A stretch of 64,000 bases of DNA from Seleniivibrio woodruffii (lineage in GTDB: Bacteria > Chrysiogenota > Deferribacteres > Deferribacterales > Geovibrionaceae): NCBI RefSeq assembly GCF_004339245.1, contig NZ_SMGG01000004.1, positions 620,001-684,000 on the forward strand, in the 5' to 3' direction. The notes beneath the pieces are model-generated. The model was not told the DNA's origin, did no database searches, and saw only the letters and a list, made by a program, of their open reading frames with translations. Below are positions 32,273-46,936 of this stretch, piece by piece. The number at the start of each line of letters is the position of its first letter. The first letter of the stretch is position 1. The position numbers and the translations under genes were made by a program.

Positions 32273-32310
32273 ATCATTTGACAAGCGGACAGGAATTTAT
32301 TACAAGAAGG

Positions 32311-32393
32311 GCGAACCCCATGACTGACGCAAATTAAGGAGGATCACCTCCGGGAAGTGGGGAGTATAACTACTAAAGCCGTGCGTCTGGGCT
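32311..32393 (+). ncRNA. ZTP (pfl) riboswitch upstream of glyA
   Basis: Key elements of the pfl motif are present in order: CCCCA (32316) pairing with TGGGG (32358), the conserved TGACTGACGC between them, the internal hairpin GGAGG/CCTCC, the GGGAAG block, and the 3' element GCCGTGCGTCTGGGC that forms the pseudoknot. ZTP riboswitches sense the folate-stress purine precursor ZMP/ZTP and control one-carbon genes such as glyA, which is directly downstream. The 3' element overlaps the terminator stem, which fits transcriptional control. Confidence 0.88.
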
Positions 32394-32427
32394 GTTCACA
32401 ATGATGAACCGTCCGGACGCTTTTTTT
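32383..32427 (+). terminator. expression-platform terminator of the ZTP riboswitch
   Basis: GCGTCTGGGCTGTTCA pairs with the later GAACCGTCCGGACGC with few mismatches, followed by seven Ts. The 5' half is part of the aptamer's pseudoknot element, so ligand binding and terminator formation are mutually exclusive. Confidence 0.85.
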
Positions 32428-32456: not shown

Positions 32457-33701
32457 ATGGAAAATCTCAAAAATTTCGATCCTCAGCTTTATGATCTCAT
32501 TAAAAAAGAGGAAGAGAGACAGATCGACAAGATCCGTATGATCGCATCTGAAAACTACGTTTCTCAGGCGGTTCTGGACGCCACAGGCACAGTTCTCACA
32601 AACAAATACTCAGAAGGCTACCCCGGCAAAAGATACTATGAAGGTCAGCAGTTCATCGACCCCATCGAAGTGATGGCAATTGAACGTGCGAAAGAGCTTT
32701 TCGGTGCGGAACATGCAAACGTTCAGCCCTATTCCGGCTCACCCGCAAACCTTGCGGTTTACCTTGCCTTCGTCAAACCCGGCGAAACAGTTCTCGGCAT
32801 GGCTCTGCCCCACGGCGGACACCTTACCCACGGCTCACCCGTCAGCATCACAGGCAAATACTTCAACATCGTTTCCTACGAACTTGATAAAGAAACAGGT
32901 CTGCTGAACTACGACACAATCAGAAAGCTGGCGATCGAACACCAGCCCAAAATGATAATCGCAGGTCACTCCGCATATCCCCGTCAGCTGGATTTCGCAA
33001 AATTCAGAGAGATAGCTGACGAAGTCGGCGCAATCCTGTTTGTTGATATGGCTCACTTCGCAGGTCTTGTGGCAGGCGGCGCACACCCCAACCCCGTTCC
33101 CTATGCGGACGTTGTCAGCACCACAACCCACAAAACCCTCAGAGGCCCCAGAGGCGGCATGCTCCTCTGCAAAGAAAAACATGCGGCGGCCATCGACAAG
33201 GCCGTTTTCCCCGGTCTTCAGGGCGGTCCCCACAACCACACAACAGCAGGAATCGCTGTGGCTCTGAAAGAGGCTATGCAGCCTGAGTTCAAGGCTTATG
33301 CCGAGAACATCTGCAAAAACGCAAAAACAATGGCCACAGAGCTTAAAGGTTACGGATTCAATCTTGTTACAGGCGGAACCGACAACCACCTTCTGCTCAT
33401 CGACCTTACAAACAAGAACGTAACAGGCAAACAGGCCGCAAAAGCTCTGGACAAGGCCGGACTTGTGCTTAACTACAACTCTGTGCCCTATGACACACGC
33501 AAGCCCTTCGATCCCTCAGGCATCAGACTGGGTCTTGCCGCTGTAACCTCCAGAGGTTTCGGCGAGGAAGAGGTTAAAAAGACCGCTGCGTGGATGAACA
33601 AAGTTATCGAAAATTTCGAGAATGAAGCTCTTCTCGATGAAATCGCCAAAGAGGTTAAGGATCTTTGCAGAAAGTTCCCTCCTCCCGGCCTTGCATACTA
33701 A
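32457..33701 (+). CDS. glyA: serine hydroxymethyltransferase
   Basis: A 414-residue PLP enzyme interconverting serine and glycine with transfer of a one-carbon unit to tetrahydrofolate. Motifs: SENYVSQAVLDATGTVLTNKYSEGYPGKRYY, NVQPYSGSPANLAVY, and the PLP lysine in STTTHKTLRGPRGG. Length equals the family. GGAGG precedes the ATG and a ZTP riboswitch controls the leader. Confidence 0.98.
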   Translation: MENLKNFDPQLYDLIKKEEERQIDKIRMIASENYVSQAVLDATGTVLTNKYSEGYPGKRYYEGQQFIDPIEVMAIERAKELFGAEHANVQPYSGSPANLAVYLAFVKPGETVLGMALPHGGHLTHGSPVSITGKYFNIVSYELDKETGLLNYDTIRKLAIEHQPKMIIAGHSAYPRQLDFAKFREIADEVGAILFVDMAHFAGLVAGGAHPNPVPYADVVSTTTHKTLRGPRGGMLLCKEKHAAAIDKAVFPGLQGGPHNHTTAGIAVALKEAMQPEFKAYAENICKNAKTMATELKGYGFNLVTGGTDNHLLLIDLTNKNVTGKQAAKALDKAGLVLNYNSVPYDTRKPFDPSGIRLGLAAVTSRGFGEEEVKKTAAWMNKVIENFENEALLDEIAKEVKDLCRKFPPPGLAY

Positions 33702-37031: not shown

Positions 37032-37058
37032 GCTTTCGGCAAACCAGAAGAATCTGCC

Positions 37059-37122
37059 GTCACTCTGAGGCGCAGGCCGAAGAGTCTCAAACAAGAGATT
37101 CTTCATTACATTCAGAATGACG
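37059..37122. repeat. dispersed palindromic repeat, family 1
   Basis: Arms GTCACTCTGAGG...GAAGAGTCTC and AGAGATTCTTC...TCAGAATGAC, separated by a few bases. Located between mobB and its terminator. Confidence 0.75.
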
Positions 37123-37159
37123 GAAACCTTACTCCACTGATAACAACATCAACCATATG

Positions 37160-37189
37160 GGCGGAACAAATTTGTTCCGCCTTTTTTTT
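37160..37189 (+). terminator. terminator of mobB
   Basis: A perfect 11-bp palindrome GGCGGAACAAA/TTTGTTCCGCC followed by eight Ts. It insulates mobB from the yezD/nfl locus. Confidence 0.88.
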
Positions 37190-37192
37190 CGC

Positions 37193-37221
37193 TTGCATTT
37201 CTTTTTAATTTATAATATAAA
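37193..37221 (+). promoter_or_regulatory. candidate promoter of the yezD-nflHDK locus
   Basis: TTGCAT (37193-37198), a 17-base spacer and TATAAA (37216-37221). The -10 overlaps a 13-base sequence, TATAAAATCTATA, which also occurs upstream of sbp (45863-45875). Confidence 0.55.
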
Positions 37222-37256: not shown

Positions 37257-37448
37257 ATGACAGCAAACCGACTTCAACGGCCAACAGCATGGAACAGCGA
37301 TATCGAAAGACTGGTGAAAGAACTTGTATCATCCGTAATGTTCGGAACTGTGACCATCATAATTCAGGACGGACGCATAATACAGGTTGACCGAAACGAA
37401 AAGATACGCATTTCAAAAAGCGTACATCAGGACTGGTCGGGAATTTAA
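37257..37448 (+). CDS. YezD-type small protein (DUF2292)
   Basis: A 63-residue protein. The core VKELVSSVMFGTVTIIIQDGRIIQVDRNEKIRI matches the DUF2292/YezD pattern, a short strand-turn-strand with a helix before it. The family often lies beside sulfur-assimilation genes; its function is not known. The start ATG has only a weak ribosome site (ACGGTG). It is the first gene of the nitrogenase-like locus: a hairpin-T-tract separates it from nflH and no room for another promoter exists after that hairpin. Confidence 0.78.
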   Translation: MTANRLQRPTAWNSDIERLVKELVSSVMFGTVTIIIQDGRIIQVDRNEKIRISKSVHQDWSGI

Positions 37449-37498
37449 CCCGCCGCCCTTACAGTTGAATATGAAACCAGACTGACCGGTAAACCGGA

Positions 37499-37534
37499 GG
37501 CTGAGAATAGAACCCCTATTCTCGGCCTTTTTTT
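37499..37534 (+). terminator. strong hairpin with T-tract between yezD and nflH (possible attenuator)
   Basis: A 12-bp stem GGCTGAGAATAG/CTATTCTCGGCC (one G-T pair) with a five-base loop and seven Ts. The T-tract ends only 18 bases before the nflH ATG, which leaves room for the ribosome site AGGAG but not for a promoter. Two smaller hairpins precede it (CGGG/CCCG and CCGG-TAAA-CCGG). Confidence 0.85.
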
Positions 37535-37552
37535 GTTTTAACAGGAGTAGGC

Positions 37553-38431
37553 ATGAGTGCAAAAGCTATCAAAAAAATTGCTATCTACGGAAAAGGCGGT
37601 ATCGGAAAATCCACTACCACCTCAAATCTGAGTGCGGCTCTGTCCGTGCTGGGCTACAAAGTTTTACAGGTGGGGTGTGACCCCAAAAGCGACTCAACCG
37701 TAACATTGCGCTCCGGCGAGTACATCCCCACCATCCTTGAGATTCTTAAAAACAAGAACACCCCGAAGCTGCACGAAATAGTCTACACAGGCTTCAACAA
37801 CGTATATTGCGTTGAGGCGGGAGGCCCTGCCCCCGGTGTCGGCTGTGCAGGCAGAGGCATAATCACTTCCGTTGAGCTTCTGAAACAGCTCAGGGCTTTT
37901 GAAGAGCTTGATCTGGACTACGTTATCTTCGATGTTCTGGGTGACGTTGTTTGCGGCGGATTCGCCGTTCCCATCAGGGAAGGCATAGCCGATCATGTTT
38001 TTACCGTCTCCTCGTCGGATTTCATGGCGGTTTACGCCGCAAACAACCTCTTCACAGGAATACGGAAATACTCAAACCAGAACGGTGCTCTTCTGGGCGG
38101 AATAATAGCAAACTCGGTGAACCAGCCCTATTCCAAGGACATCATCGATGATTTTGCAGAACGCACCGGAACGAAGATAATGGAATACGTCCCCCGCTCG
38201 CTCACCGTCACCCAGAGCGAACTTCAGGGGCAGACCACTCTGGAGGCTTTTCCCGAATCCGCTCAGGCTCAGGTATACCTGAACCTTGCCGGAAAAGTGG
38301 CACAGCACCAGGAATCGAAGATTCCGCAGCCCCTTGAGGTTGAGGAACTGCGCAAATGGGCATCTGACTGGTCTGAAAAACTGCTGGAACTTGAAAAAGG
38401 TACGGTGCAGAGCACCGGCGCAAGCATATAG
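37553..38431 (+). CDS. nitrogenase-like reductase component (NifH family)
   Basis: A 292-residue homodimeric iron protein homologue. The P-loop is GKGGIGKS (residues 13-20), GCDPKSDST is switch I, and the two cysteines that would hold the shared [4Fe-4S] cluster are Cys98 (GVGCAGRGI) and Cys134 (GDVVCGGFA). By family knowledge it passes electrons to a NifDK-like partner with ATP hydrolysis. It is not in a nif context: no nifB, nifE, nifN or nif regulators are near. ATG 37553 follows AGGAG; the next gene starts nine bases after its stop. Confidence 0.93.
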
Positions 38432-38440
38432 GAGCGCAAA

Positions 38441-39949
38441 ATGAGTTACTACGAACTGAAGCAGCCCCCGAAAAGGGAGGACAGACTCAACGCATGTATC
38501 GCCCATGGTTCGTCCGTTTGCGGCATGGGAAACAAAAAGGGAAAAGCCTGTCTGATGCAGGACGGCGAGCGTGGATTTCAGCAGGGGTCAATATGCCTTC
38601 TGCTGCCAGCTCTCGGCATGCTGAACAGCATGCCCGGCAACGTTGTTCTCCTGCACAGCTCGCTGGGATGCTCCACGGCAACGCACTCGCAAAACGGCAG
38701 TGTACGCTACGGCAACCTCGCCCGAACAGGTAAGCTGACCGACGTCATCTGGGCATCCACAGCTCTCAACGAAACCGATGTGATAAGCGGCGGAGAAGAG
38801 AAGCTCAGCGAAGCCATAAAAGAGATAGACGCACGCTATAAACCCTACTGCATAACCGTTGTGTCGGCATGTGTTCCCGGAATAATCGGCGACGATATCG
38901 ACGCCGTGATCCAGAACGTTCAGCCGGAGGTGGATGCTGTGCTCCTGCCTGTCCATTGCGAAGGCTTCCGCACAAAAATATGGGCAACGGCCTACGATGC
39001 GGTATACCACGGCATAAGCCGCACCCTCTTTTCAGGGAAACTGGGCGATGTCTCAAAGATCCGTGAGGATCTGAAACTGCCCAGACTTGAAAAAACCATC
39101 AATATCATGAACGTCTCCTCAATGGGACGAATAGACGAGCTGGAGCTTGAAAGACTGGTGAAAAAGATAGGTCTTGAGGCTAATATTTTTCCCGTCTACG
39201 CCCATCCCCAGAGCTTTGTGAAGGCATCACAGGCGGCTCTCTCCGTAAGCACATGCCCCACCCACGACGACTATTTCCTCGACTATCTGAAAGAGCGTTT
39301 CGACGTGCCATACACCCTCGCCCACATGCCCATCGGAATTGAAAACACCGGATTGTGGCTGAAGGATATCGCCGACAGACTGGGACTTGGCGCAGAGGCC
39401 GAAACCGTGATAAAGGAAGAAGAGACAGCTCTGCATAAGGCATTGGCTCAGTTCAAAGAATATTTTAAAGGCAAGAGGGTGTTTGTGAGTGCGGGAGAGT
39501 TCCGTGCGCTGTCAACCTCACTGCTTCTTGAAGAATTGGGTTTCGAAGTGGTCGGCATACGGTCGTTCCATCACGATGCCTTTGCCGACAACGAATATGA
39601 AAAACTGAACAGGTCCGCCAAAAGCGACTATGTTGTCAATATAGCAAACGTTCAGCCGTTTGAAGAGGCCAATCTGCTGAAAAAGCTGAAGCCCGACCTC
39701 TTTCTCGGTCACACTAACGGAAACGCCACAGCGGCGAAACTAGGAATCCCCACCCACCCGATCTATTATTCCGGTATCGCCTACATAGGCTACGCCGGAG
39801 CTTATCAGCTGGCAAAGAGGCTTTACAGACTTCTGAAGAACCCCTCATTCAACAGAAACCTGTCGAAGCATGTCACACTTCCCTATAAGCAGGAATGGTA
39901 CAGCGAAAGCCCCTTTGCCTACATTAAAGGAGGAAACTCAGATGGCTGA
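38441..39949 (+). CDS. nitrogenase-like catalytic component, NifD/NifE type
   Basis: A 502-residue NifD-type subunit. Cys52, Cys77 and Cys144 match the three P-cluster positions of NifD (spacing 52-77 is 25; Cys144 is in VVSACVPGIIGDDID). Cys272 in STCPTHDDYFLDYLKERF sits where NifD holds the active-site cofactor cysteine (HCYRSMNYI block). In the segment equivalent to the cofactor histidine (LGIPTHPIYYSG) the histidine is His439, three residues before the aligned NifD position, which is tyrosine here. The N-terminus has an extra set of cysteines (19, 27, 37). Forms the D half of an NflDK complex. Substrate unknown; see findings. Confidence 0.9.
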   Translation: MSYYELKQPPKREDRLNACIAHGSSVCGMGNKKGKACLMQDGERGFQQGSICLLLPALGMLNSMPGNVVLLHSSLGCSTATHSQNGSVRYGNLARTGKLTDVIWASTALNETDVISGGEEKLSEAIKEIDARYKPYCITVVSACVPGIIGDDIDAVIQNVQPEVDAVLLPVHCEGFRTKIWATAYDAVYHGISRTLFSGKLGDVSKIREDLKLPRLEKTINIMNVSSMGRIDELELERLVKKIGLEANIFPVYAHPQSFVKASQAALSVSTCPTHDDYFLDYLKERFDVPYTLAHMPIGIENTGLWLKDIADRLGLGAEAETVIKEEETALHKALAQFKEYFKGKRVFVSAGEFRALSTSLLLEELGFEVVGIRSFHHDAFADNEYEKLNRSAKSDYVVNIANVQPFEEANLLKKLKPDLFLGHTNGNATAAKLGIPTHPIYYSGIAYIGYAGAYQLAKRLYRLLKNPSFNRNLSKHVTLPYKQEWYSESPFAYIKGGNSDG

Positions 39950-41273
39950 ACACTTTATAGAACGTCCAAGATATTCATGTGCTCTCGGCGGAGCATTTTT
40001 CACCTCTACGGCACTTCCCGAAACGGTATCTATCGTCCACTCCGGTTCGGGTTGTGCCGGATCCTTCGCATGGGGGCAGAACGGCGGAAGCGGATGTCAG
40101 GTCAGCGGCCACTGTGCGGCTCTGGCGGCTGCTGGTACGAACGTTCAGGAACACGAAGTGGTCTTCGGCGGAGAGGATCGCCTGAAAGAAGAGATAGAAG
40201 GCACTCTTAAAGTTCTGGACGGAAAGCTCTATCTGGTACTTACGGGGTGCGTCACGGAGATAATCGGAGATGATGTTAATGCCGTCATAAACGAATTTAA
40301 AGAGGTCGGGGTTGAGATTGCCGCCGCCCTCACCGGAGGATTCAAAGGCAGTTCATACAAAGGGTATGACATAGTTCTGAAAGCCCTGATAAAGGACTTC
40401 GTTAAACCAGCACAGGAGAAAATACCCAACAGGGTCAATATCTTCGGCATAGTTCCCTTCGTAGATCCTTTCTGGCGTGGAAACCTTGAAGGCATAAGAG
40501 ACCTGCTCAGGGGTGCCGGAATAGAGGCGAACGTTTTCTTTACGCCGGATTCAAAGCTAGCAGACCTTGAATATTCGGCGTCTGCATCTCTGAACGTTGT
40601 GGTTTCAGGCGTGTACGGAATCGACCCTGCGGCGGAGTTTGAAAGAATACATAAAACTCCCTACACCTCACTGCCCCTGCCCATAGGCGCAGCGGCTTCG
40701 GCATCGTTCGTGCGTGCGGTATCCTCCGCTCTGGGGATAGATTCCGAAAGCTACATAGAGAGCGAGACAGAAAAATATTACAAATATCTGGAACTGCTCA
40801 CCGACTGCTACACCGATCTGGACTTTCAGCGTTATGCGTTGGTGGTGGGCGACTCGAACTACTCGGTGGCTGTAACAAAATTTCTGGCAAACGAGGTAGG
40901 CTGGGTTCCTGTTCTGGCTCAATGCACGGATATCCTCACTCCGGAAGAACAGGACAGGATAAAAGAACTGCTGGCAGACGGCATAACTTCCGACGTCCAC
41001 GTTGTTTTCGATACGGACGGCAGTCAATCGGCTGTGCATCTTAAAGAAATATGGGATGAAAACCGACACGGAGTATATGCGAACACCTTCTCTCCGGCAT
41101 TCGTTGCGGGCAGTTCTCTGGAAAGAGCCACAGCCGAACAGCTGGGCGCAGGACATCTGAGCATATCGTTTCCAGTGTCCAACAGAGTTATAATCAACAG
41201 GGGATACACAGGTTTTAAAGGGGGACTGACTCTGTCAGAGGATCTCTTAAGCGTTCTTGTCTCCCCAAGATAG
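39942..41273 (+). CDS. nitrogenase-like catalytic component, NifK/NifN type
   Basis: A 443-residue NifK-type subunit. The three P-cluster-position cysteines are Cys13, Cys38 (HSGSGCAGSF) and Cys103 (LTGCVTEIIGDD); spacing 13-38 is the same as in NifK. Two further cysteines (52, 58) sit in the next loop. The N-terminal extension typical of true NifK is missing. The ATG at 39942, with AAAGGAGG upstream, overlaps the nflD end by eight bases; a longer in-frame start inside nflD has no family support. Together with NflD it would be the reductase core. Confidence 0.9.
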   Translation: MAEHFIERPRYSCALGGAFFTSTALPETVSIVHSGSGCAGSFAWGQNGGSGCQVSGHCAALAAAGTNVQEHEVVFGGEDRLKEEIEGTLKVLDGKLYLVLTGCVTEIIGDDVNAVINEFKEVGVEIAAALTGGFKGSSYKGYDIVLKALIKDFVKPAQEKIPNRVNIFGIVPFVDPFWRGNLEGIRDLLRGAGIEANVFFTPDSKLADLEYSASASLNVVVSGVYGIDPAAEFERIHKTPYTSLPLPIGAAASASFVRAVSSALGIDSESYIESETEKYYKYLELLTDCYTDLDFQRYALVVGDSNYSVAVTKFLANEVGWVPVLAQCTDILTPEEQDRIKELLADGITSDVHVVFDTDGSQSAVHLKEIWDENRHGVYANTFSPAFVAGSSLERATAEQLGAGHLSISFPVSNRVIINRGYTGFKGGLTLSEDLLSVLVSPR

Positions 41274-45943: not shown

Positions 45944-46936
45944 ATGAGAAAACTGCTGAAACCTTTTCTGACAATTGCTGTGCTCTTCGCACTGCCTCTC
46001 ACGCTTCTGGCAAAGGACATTACGCTCCTGAATGTTTCCTATGATCCCACCAGAGAGCTCTACGAAGAGTTCAACAAAGCTTTCGCCGTATACTGGAAAG
46101 CAAAGACAGGCGACAACGTCACCATTAAACAGTCCCACGGCGGCTCAGGCAAACAGGCACGCTCGGTTATAGACGGCCTTGAGGTGGACGTTGTTACTCT
46201 GGCTCTGGCATACGACATCGATGCCATCCACGACAACGGCAACCTCCTCCCTGCTGACTGGCAGAAACGTTTTAAATCCAACAGCTCACCCTATACATCA
46301 ACAATCGTTTTCCTCGTAAGAAAGGATAACCCCAAAGGCATCAAAGACTGGAACGACCTTATCAAACCCGGTGTGGCAGTTATCACCCCCAACCCCAAAA
46401 CTTCCGGCGGAGCCAGATGGAATTATCTTGCCGCATGGGCATACGCTCTGGAACACAAGCAGAATCCTCAGGAATTTGTGAAAGCTCTGTACAAGAACGT
46501 TCCCGTGCTTGACTCCGGCGCAAGGGGCGCAACAACGACCTTCGTTGAGCGGGGCATAGGCGATGTATTCCTTTCATGGGAGAACGAAGCTTTCCTTGTT
46601 CTTAATGAGCTTGGCAAGGATAAATTCGAAATAGTCGTACCCAGCCTCAGCATTCTCGCTGAACCCCCTGTTGCAGTGGTTGACAAAGTTGTGGACAAAA
46701 GAGGCACAAGAGACGTTGCAACAGCATACCTTAACTACCTCTATACAGTTGATGGCCAGCGTATCGCCGCACAGAACTACTATCGCCCCAGAGACAAGAA
46801 AGCTCTGGATGCATACGGCAAGTTCTTCGTTAAGACCAAACTGGTGACAGTGGACAAAACTTTCGGCGGATGGCGTAAGGCTCAGAAGACCCATTTTGAT
46901 GACGGCGGAACTTTCGACCAGATCTACGGCAAATAA
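45944..46936 (+). CDS. sbp: sulfate/thiosulfate ABC transporter substrate-binding protein
   Basis: A 330-residue periplasmic binding protein: signal peptide of about 23 residues, then [49 protein letters not shown] and [17 protein letters not shown], the sulfate-binding signature. It captures sulfate for CysTWA. It is separated from cysT by 252 bases holding two dispersed repeats, so a second promoter or read-through may serve the permease genes. Confidence 0.96.

What the first reader, a model, noticed from the sequence alone, without database searches (positions are those of the whole stretch)
37434..37552. Structured leader and probable attenuator controlling nflHDK
A 12-bp hairpin with seven Ts ends 18 bases before the nflH ATG, leaving no room for a promoter. 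Unless a promoter lies inside yezD, the nfl genes must be reached by read-through, so a regulated terminator is likely. Two smaller hairpins (CGGG/CCCG and CCGG-TAAA-CCGG) and a CTGGT/ACCAG pair precede it, partly overlapping the end of yezD. This could be a riboswitch or protein-bound leader not matching types I know.
Basis: partly seen in the sequence, partly recalled or inferred. Interest (0 to 1): 0.65.

Follow-up and report, generated by a model that had tools for sequence, protein, structure and literature searches.

The report
YezD-linked RNA switch for sulfur genes
Just before a set of nitrogenase-like sulfur-scavenging genes lies a 21-base RNA hairpin that overlaps a transcription stop signal; the same hairpin recurs next to genes for one unexplained small protein family (YezD/OscA) in four bacterial phyla and in phages, so that protein is probably the RNA-binding switch that lets transcription continue into sulfur genes or phage late genes.

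Summary
A strong terminator (37499-37534) lies between yezD and nflH. Of the small hairpins noted, only CCGG-TAAA-CCGG is conserved. It is the core of a 21-nt element, GCUGA-[4-bp stem-loop]-AGGC (window 37481-37501), whose last three bases are the first three of the terminator stem. The two structures therefore exclude each other.

With 44 instances, 5 of 7 pairs covary. Rfam has no matching family. The element precedes cysK, metK, metY, metQ, sulfite reductase/cysH, ABC-transporter genes, nifB and nflH/nflD. It usually overlaps a terminator in the same register.

It tracks DUF2292 (YezD/OscA) genes. It occurs downstream of them in Desulfobacterota, Planctomycetota, Bacillota and this Deferribacterales genome; element-plus-terminator was not found in DUF2292-negative genomes.

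Phages give an independent test. Contigs found by the RNA pattern alone encode DUF2292-like proteins upstream (8/17 with terminator, 0/103 without; p=3e-8). Contigs found by protein alone carry the element downstream (10 of 12 within 520 nt, an 11th at ~950), often before late genes.

Best reading: DUF2292 proteins are RNA-binding antiterminators that work like LicT/BglG but are not homologous. Protein binding and direction of control are inferred.

The parts
37159..37182 (+). intrinsic terminator of the upstream mobB transcript; boundary of the yezD-nfl unit
   Evidence: 10-bp stem + T8
37193..37221 (+). probable sigma-70 promoter of yezD-nflHDK: TTGCAT-17-TATAAA
   Evidence: pattern match 8 of 12; prediction only
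37257..37448 (+). yezD, DUF2292/OscA-family small protein (63 aa from ATG 37257; TTG 37233 possible); proposed RNA-binding antiterminator
   Evidence: Pfam PF10055, E=1.1e-14, 54.1 bits; absent from 47 other genomes of the class
37481..37501 (+). conserved RNA element ACUGACCGGUAAACCGGAGGC: C82-G100, U83-G99, internal loop GA(84-85)/A98, CCGG(86-89)/CCGG(94-97), loop UAAA; proposed protein-bound antiterminator hairpin
   Evidence: model R1 29.2 bits, the only hit in its genome; covariation of the family 5 of 7 pairs
37499..37534 (+). intrinsic terminator (12-bp stem, U7); first three bases GGC (37499-37501) shared with the RNA element; extended pairing from 37496
37543..37547 (+). Shine-Dalgarno AGGAG of nflH
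   Evidence: sequence
37553..38431 (+). nflH, NifH-like reductase of the controlled operon
   Evidence: PF00142 E=1.8e-97
38441..39949 (+). nflD, nitrogenase-like catalytic subunit; best solved match is 9d9u/9fmg chain A, taken to be methylthio-alkane reductase
   Evidence: E=1.4e-61
39942..41273 (+). nflK, nitrogenase-like catalytic subunit
   Evidence: PF00148 E=6.6e-68

Best explanation
The yezD-nflH intergenic region is a protein-dependent antitermination switch. Transcription starts before yezD (37193-37221). By default it stops at 37534, so only yezD mRNA is made. YezD (DUF2292) binds the 21-nt hairpin at 37481-37501, most likely at its conserved GA/A internal loop. Binding stabilises the hairpin, which keeps bases 37499-37501 out of the terminator stem and lets polymerase read into nflHDK. 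The regulator gene sits directly upstream of the terminator it controls, as bglG does in the bgl operon. The signal (sulfur shortage) probably reaches the switch through the level or activity of YezD. In other bacteria an Rrf2-family regulator gene, twice with a cysK-type gene, lies just upstream of DUF2292. The same protein-RNA module controls other sulfur genes in trans in other bacteria, and late genes in phages. Shown here by sequence comparison: the conserved element, covariation, overlap with the terminator, target genes and co-occurrence with DUF2292. Inferred: protein binding, antitermination as the direction, and the sulfur signal.
For: 1. Structure: 44 instances, 98.1% of pair cells paired (shuffled mean 89.0), 5 of 7 pairs with two-sided changes (CCGG/CCGG, CCAG/CTGG, TCAG/CTGA, CTAG/CTAG). 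RNAalifold on a MAFFT alignment returns the same fold. 2. Overlap: 35 of 44 hits in DUF2292+ genomes have a terminator starting in the element's 3' arm, nearly always in one register; 1 of 14 hits in DUF2292- genomes, 3.3% background, p=1.8e-6. 3. Energetics in the window: element alone -7.3 kcal/mol; full RNA prefers the terminator (-26.2) over the forced element fold (-19.2), so a stabiliser is needed. 4. Targets: cysK, metK, metY, metQ, sulfite reductase/CysH, rhodanese, DsrE, TauE, nifB, nflH/D. 5. DUF2292 link: element + terminator in 14 of 24 DUF2292+ genomes, none convincing in 56 DUF2292- genomes; inspected negatives lie inside long reading frames. A simple pattern in 80 further DUF2292- genomes gave 4 matches, all in long frames. 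6. Held-out loci: 3 of 12 Planctomycetota DUF2292 loci at E<=1.1e-4; Cytobacillus spongiae (Bacillota), element at the yezD stop codon, terminator, then cysH-sat-cysC. 7. Phages, both directions: 8 of 17 RNA-found terminator elements have DUF2292-like ORFs upstream against 0 of 103 without terminator (p=2.9e-8; two pass Pfam's cut-off at 40.6 and 43.6 bits); 10 of 12 protein-found loci have the element within 520 nt downstream and an 11th at about 950 nt.
Against: No binding or expression data. DUF2292 has no solved relative, and low-confidence models gave no fold match, so an RNA-binding fold is unproven. Some DUF2292 genes have no element nearby (G224 and several Planctomycetota loci). About half of the phage elements lack a recognisable DUF2292 upstream. 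In some genomes the element is near a Shine-Dalgarno site without an overlapping terminator (G111, G146, G171, G247), so control there may be translational or of the opposite sign. The window copy lacks the outermost G-C pair (A37481/C37501). R1 was trained on DUF2292-adjacent copies, so the bacterial association is partly circular; the Planctomycetota, Cytobacillus and phage tests are not.
Confidence: 0.75

Rival explanations
1. Small-metabolite riboswitch: the hairpin itself senses a sulfur metabolite (SAM, cysteine, O-acetylserine) and DUF2292 is merely a frequent first gene of the regulon.
For: Sulfur-wide regulon including metK, metY, metQ and cysK; tandem copies in G146 and G171; some elements far from any DUF2292 gene.
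Against: About 21 nt with only a 2x1 internal loop conserved, smaller than known aptamers; element + terminator not found without DUF2292 in the genome; phages carry it before late genes together with a DUF2292-like gene, which a sulfur metabolite would not explain; no Rfam match.
Confidence: 0.12
2. DUF2292 binds the element but with the opposite or a different outcome: repression, for example by blocking the GGAGG Shine-Dalgarno site or favouring termination.
For: Elements without a terminator lie close to start codons, with GGAGG inside the 3' arm (G171 and others).
Against: In most copies the 3' arm of the hairpin is the 5' arm of the terminator, so a stabilised hairpin must weaken the terminator; before phage late genes, activation is the expected sign.
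Confidence: 0.07
3. Plain terminator with constant partial read-through that sets the yezD:nfl ratio; the upstream hairpin is incidental.
For: The terminator is strong and canonical, and no antiterminator is evident from energy alone.
Against: Hairpin conserved and covarying across four phyla and phages in fixed register with the terminator.
Confidence: 0.03
4. Translation-coupled attenuation: ribosomes finishing yezD decide whether the terminator forms.
For: The yezD stop is 33 nt before the element; in Cytobacillus and one phage the element overlaps the stop codon.
Against: The same element works in leaders with no ORF before it (promoter directly upstream in L024, L025, L026 and L298) and at up to about 950 nt from the ORF.
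Confidence: 0.03

Closest known systems
BglG/LicT/SacY antiterminators and their RAT hairpins
   Same: Small RNA hairpin with an asymmetric internal loop overlapping the 5' arm of an intrinsic terminator; regulator gene directly upstream of the terminator (family knowledge; overlap and gene order tested here).
   Different: The protein is a 50-65 aa DUF2292 with no PRD domain and no Pfam match to CAT_RBD; the RNA sequence differs; regulon is sulfur genes or phage late genes, not sugars.
ANTAR antiterminators (EutV, NasR; PMC3369931)
   Same: RNA-binding protein prevents formation of an intrinsic terminator.
   Different: ANTAR sites are dual hairpins with hexanucleotide loops; here a single hairpin whose conserved bases lie in an internal loop, with variable 4-6 nt terminal loops.
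S-box (SAM-I) riboswitch
   Same: Leader attenuator of sulfur genes; from general knowledge it controls the B. subtilis cysH operon, the counterpart of the operon found behind YezD + element in Cytobacillus.
   Different: Much smaller element, no Rfam SAM match, tied to a protein family.
OscA of Pseudomonas corrugata (oscA-sbp; cited in PMC2996968)
   Same: Same protein superfamily by NCBIfam NF033785 (26.4 bits, below its cut-off of 85); sulfur-starvation response.
   Different: No RNA role described in the text read; no element was seen behind the OscA-like gene of G224.
Methylthio-alkane reductase (MarHDK; PMC12552129)
   Same: NflD best matches 9d9u/9fmg, taken from general knowledge to be the Mar structures (E=1.4e-61).
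   Different: No leader RNA is reported for it in the paper passages read.

Membership tests
BglG/LicT-RAT antitermination | RNA hairpin overlapping and excluding an intrinsic terminator | tested here: met
BglG/LicT-RAT antitermination | protein with CAT_RBD RNA-binding and PRD domains | tested here: not met
   YezD matches only DUF2292 in Pfam
BglG/LicT-RAT antitermination | protein stabilises the hairpin | not testable with these tools
   needs binding assay
Known riboswitch or cis-regulatory RNA families (Rfam 15) | score above a family's gathering threshold | tested here: not met
ANTAR antitermination | two adjacent hairpins with conserved hexanucleotide loops | tested here: not met
   single hairpin, loop of 4-6 variable bases
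DUF2292 / YezD (PF10055) | profile match above the curated cut-off | tested here: met
   54.1 bits against a cut-off of 22
OscA (NF033785 equivalog) | score above the curated cut-off of 85 bits | tested here: not met
   26.4 bits
Methylthio-alkane reductase (Mar/Nfl) | catalytic subunit closest to MarD among solved nitrogenase-like enzymes | tested here: met
   that 9d9u/9fmg are the Mar structures is from general knowledge
Methylthio-alkane reductase (Mar/Nfl) | C-S bond cleavage of methylthio-alkanes | not testable with these tools
   needs enzyme assay

The most novel reading that the evidence does not exclude
DUF2292 (YezD/OscA) proteins are a previously unrecognised family of sequence-specific RNA-binding antiterminators. 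Together with a 21-nt RNA element they form a compact module used by bacteria of several phyla for sulfur regulons, including the nitrogenase-like Nfl/Mar enzymes, and by phages to switch on late genes.
Probability: 0.7. Interest if true: 0.88.

Novelty: new variant of a known kind. Interest (0 to 1): 0.82.

Why it matters
It gives a testable function to DUF2292 (YezD/OscA), a small protein family that Pfam still lists as uncharacterized. It adds a protein-controlled RNA element to sulfur regulation, in Cytobacillus at an operon whose B. subtilis counterpart is controlled by a SAM riboswitch. It explains how a nitrogenase-like methylthio-alkane reductase operon could be switched on without its own promoter. 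It points to a very small antitermination module shared by bacteria and phages, at most about 65 codons plus 21 nt, which could serve as a genetic tool.

Tried and rejected
Energy-based folding of the leader without the terminator: not better than shuffles, so comparison was used instead. Sigma-54 promoter search: nothing before yezD or nflH; the single GG-N10-GC match at 37488 lies inside the element. The closest nfl relatives (L003, L004: nifB-nifX-nflHDK) have no DUF2292, element or terminator; this looked like non-conservation until DUF2292 loci were examined. The DNA of the leader has no match in the family beyond short chance hits. Model R1 alone does not separate weak true copies from chance: several DUF2292- genomes score 24-31 bits, but those hits lie inside long reading frames without terminator. 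G049 at 31.4 bits is such a case. Sequence and fold searches of DUF2292 in the PDB were uninformative. Plasmid tblastn gave only Cytobacillus. DUF2292 was not found by tblastn in annotated phages; it appeared only in IMG/VR contigs. A DNA-operator reading was rejected: the U-G wobble pair is the commonest at its position (32 of 44), the orientation is always sense, and the register with the terminator is fixed.

Full report
CHECK OF THE OBSERVATION. The window contains mobB, a terminator (37159-37182), yezD (ATG 37257, stop 37446-37448), and nflH (37553), nflD and nflK. The terminator at 37499-37534 is as described and is far more stable than shuffled sequence (z = -5.1); the rest of the leader is not (z = -0.3 to -1.0). 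The likeliest promoter is TTGCAT-17-TATAAA upstream of yezD. NflD is closest, among solved structures, to 9d9u/9fmg (E=1.4e-61), which I take from general knowledge to be methylthio-alkane reductase. That enzyme scavenges sulfur when sulfate is short (PMC12552129).

A LOCALLY UNIQUE MODULE. In 48 genomes of the class, both yezD and nflD occur only in this genome, not even in four others of its genus. The closest nfl operons, in termite-gut MAGs, are nifB-nifX-nflHDK without DUF2292 and without a leader terminator. Other Desulfobacterota do have a terminator immediately before nifB or nflD.

FINDING THE ELEMENT. Reading the sequence downstream of 23 DUF2292 genes found in 390 Desulfobacterota genomes showed a recurring string, GCTGACC[GA]G-N4/5-C[CT]GGAGGC. 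The window copy is ACTGACCGGTAAACCGGAGGC (37481-37501). A variant, GCTGATCAG..CTGAAGGC, lies before nfl and other genes in six genomes whose DUF2292 is a tandem two-domain protein. Covariation on the first 20 sequences was already clear. On a curated set of 44 (MAFFT, not fitted to the structure) 98.1% of pair cells pair, five of seven pairs show two-sided changes, and no shuffle reaches the covariation score. RNAalifold independently predicts the same fold. Stem types include CCGG/CCGG, CCAG/CTGG, TCAG/CTGA, TCAA/TTGA and CTAG/CTAG (Cytobacillus); a phage copy outside this set has CTAT/ATAG. The conserved bases surround an asymmetric internal loop (5'-CUGA / A-GG-3').

OVERLAP WITH THE TERMINATOR. 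In 35 of 44 model hits from DUF2292-positive genomes, a terminator begins inside the element's 3' arm, usually at the same offset (GGAGGC or GAAGGC). The same test succeeds at 1 of 14 hits in DUF2292-negative genomes and 3.3% of random positions. In the window, the hairpin forms first (-7.3 kcal/mol), but the complete RNA prefers the terminator (-26.2 against -19.2 with the hairpin forced). A stabilising factor is therefore needed for read-through.

TARGETS. Behind the element are cysK, metK, metY, metQ, a sulfite reductase gene followed by a CysH-type gene, rhodanese, DsrE, TauE, YeiH-type and ABC-transporter genes, nifB, and nflH/nflD. G148 has about seven copies within some 31 kb of DUF2292. 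In several genomes an Rrf2-family gene lies upstream of DUF2292, twice with a cysK-type (PALP) gene between. This suggests a cascade from a CymR-like sensor to DUF2292 to the regulon, which is inference.

LINK TO DUF2292. With the model, element + overlapping terminator occurs in 14 of 24 DUF2292-positive genomes. In 56 negative ones there is at most one doubtful case. The inspected negative hits lie mostly in long reading frames. A simple pattern in 80 more negative genomes gave four matches, all in long frames. Because the model was trained on DUF2292-adjacent copies, held-out tests matter more. Three of 12 Planctomycetota DUF2292 loci score E<=1.1e-4, with degenerate forms in others. In Cytobacillus spongiae (Bacillota) the element overlaps the yezD stop codon and is followed by an overlapping terminator and the cysH-sat-cysC operon.

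THE PHAGE TEST. A scan of viral contigs with the DNA pattern alone gave 120 matches. Of these, 17 have the overlapping terminator, and 8 of the 17 have a DUF2292-like ORF within 600 nt upstream; none of the 103 without terminator has one (p=2.9e-8). Two of these proteins clearly pass Pfam's DUF2292 cut-off. Conversely, a scan with the phage protein profile gave 12 true relatives. Ten have element + terminator within 520 nt downstream, and an eleventh has the element about 950 nt downstream. Genes behind the phage elements include portal, terminase and a DUF1492 regulator. The two searches share no input other than the hypothesis, so this is the strongest evidence that protein and RNA act together. 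It also argues for activation (read-through), since late genes must be switched on.

SOURCE OF THE MODULE. The window's YezD is closest to the single-domain proteins of G148 and G337 (57% and 53%) and its element has the C-G type. Its nfl genes are closest to termite-gut lineages whose elements, where present, are of the U-A type. Among the 44 elements, all 18 U-A types come from the six tandem-DUF2292 genomes and all 26 C-G types from others. Protein and element therefore seem to travel together, placed in front of nflHDK from another source.

MECHANISM AND LIMITS. Shown: element, covariation, exclusive pairing, targets, co-occurrence. Inferred: binding of DUF2292 to the internal loop, antitermination, sulfur signalling. 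Structure prediction of YezD (helix plus beta strands, pLDDT 66-67) was too weak to compare, and no solved relative exists. Literature searches in the open-access library found no RNA role for YezD, OscA or DUF2292. That library lacks most subscription journals, so prior description cannot be excluded.

VERDICT. It works like RAT/LicT antitermination but fails membership in that family because the protein domain is absent. It is best described as a new protein-RNA antitermination module.

Noticed in passing
window 32310-32399 (+): ZMP/ZTP riboswitch (54.2 bits) directly before the gene at 32457, which looks like glyA; ordinary.
   Followed up: no
window 37037-37125: Imperfect palindrome (GTCACTCTGAGG...AGAATGACG) resembling a REP-like repeat between mobB and its terminator; a 25-bp match occurs at G000:C5:219938.
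   Followed up: no
L058-L062, L064: Tandem two-domain DUF2292 proteins in Desulfobacterota genomes that carry nfl genes; all their elements have U-A instead of C-G next to the internal loop, suggesting co-evolution.
   Followed up: partly
L176, L179, L180, L185, L194, L208, L237, L245, L249, L288-L298, L300: Phage contigs with DUF2292-like genes and/or the element + terminator, several before late genes; Pfam PBSX_XtrA (PF17356) weakly matches one DUF2292 member (E=0.008), so PBSX XtrA may be related.
   Followed up: partly
L157, L159, L075: Elements without a terminator at the usual place are followed by a short hairpin with a T-run just inside the next reading frame (GGCTGATAATCAGCCTTTTGTTTT), possibly a displaced terminator.
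   Followed up: no
G000:C3:799978-801279: A true nifB lies elsewhere in the window's genome (488.9 bits), so cluster assembly for Nfl need not depend on a local nifB.
   Followed up: yes
L077:3684-4559: A lone NifH-like gene sits between a porin gene and a sulfate-binding-protein gene in a DUF2292/element sulfur cluster (G337).
   Followed up: no
window 45944-46936: Sulfate ABC transporter binding protein gene downstream of the nfl region; it has no copy of the element.
   Followed up: partly
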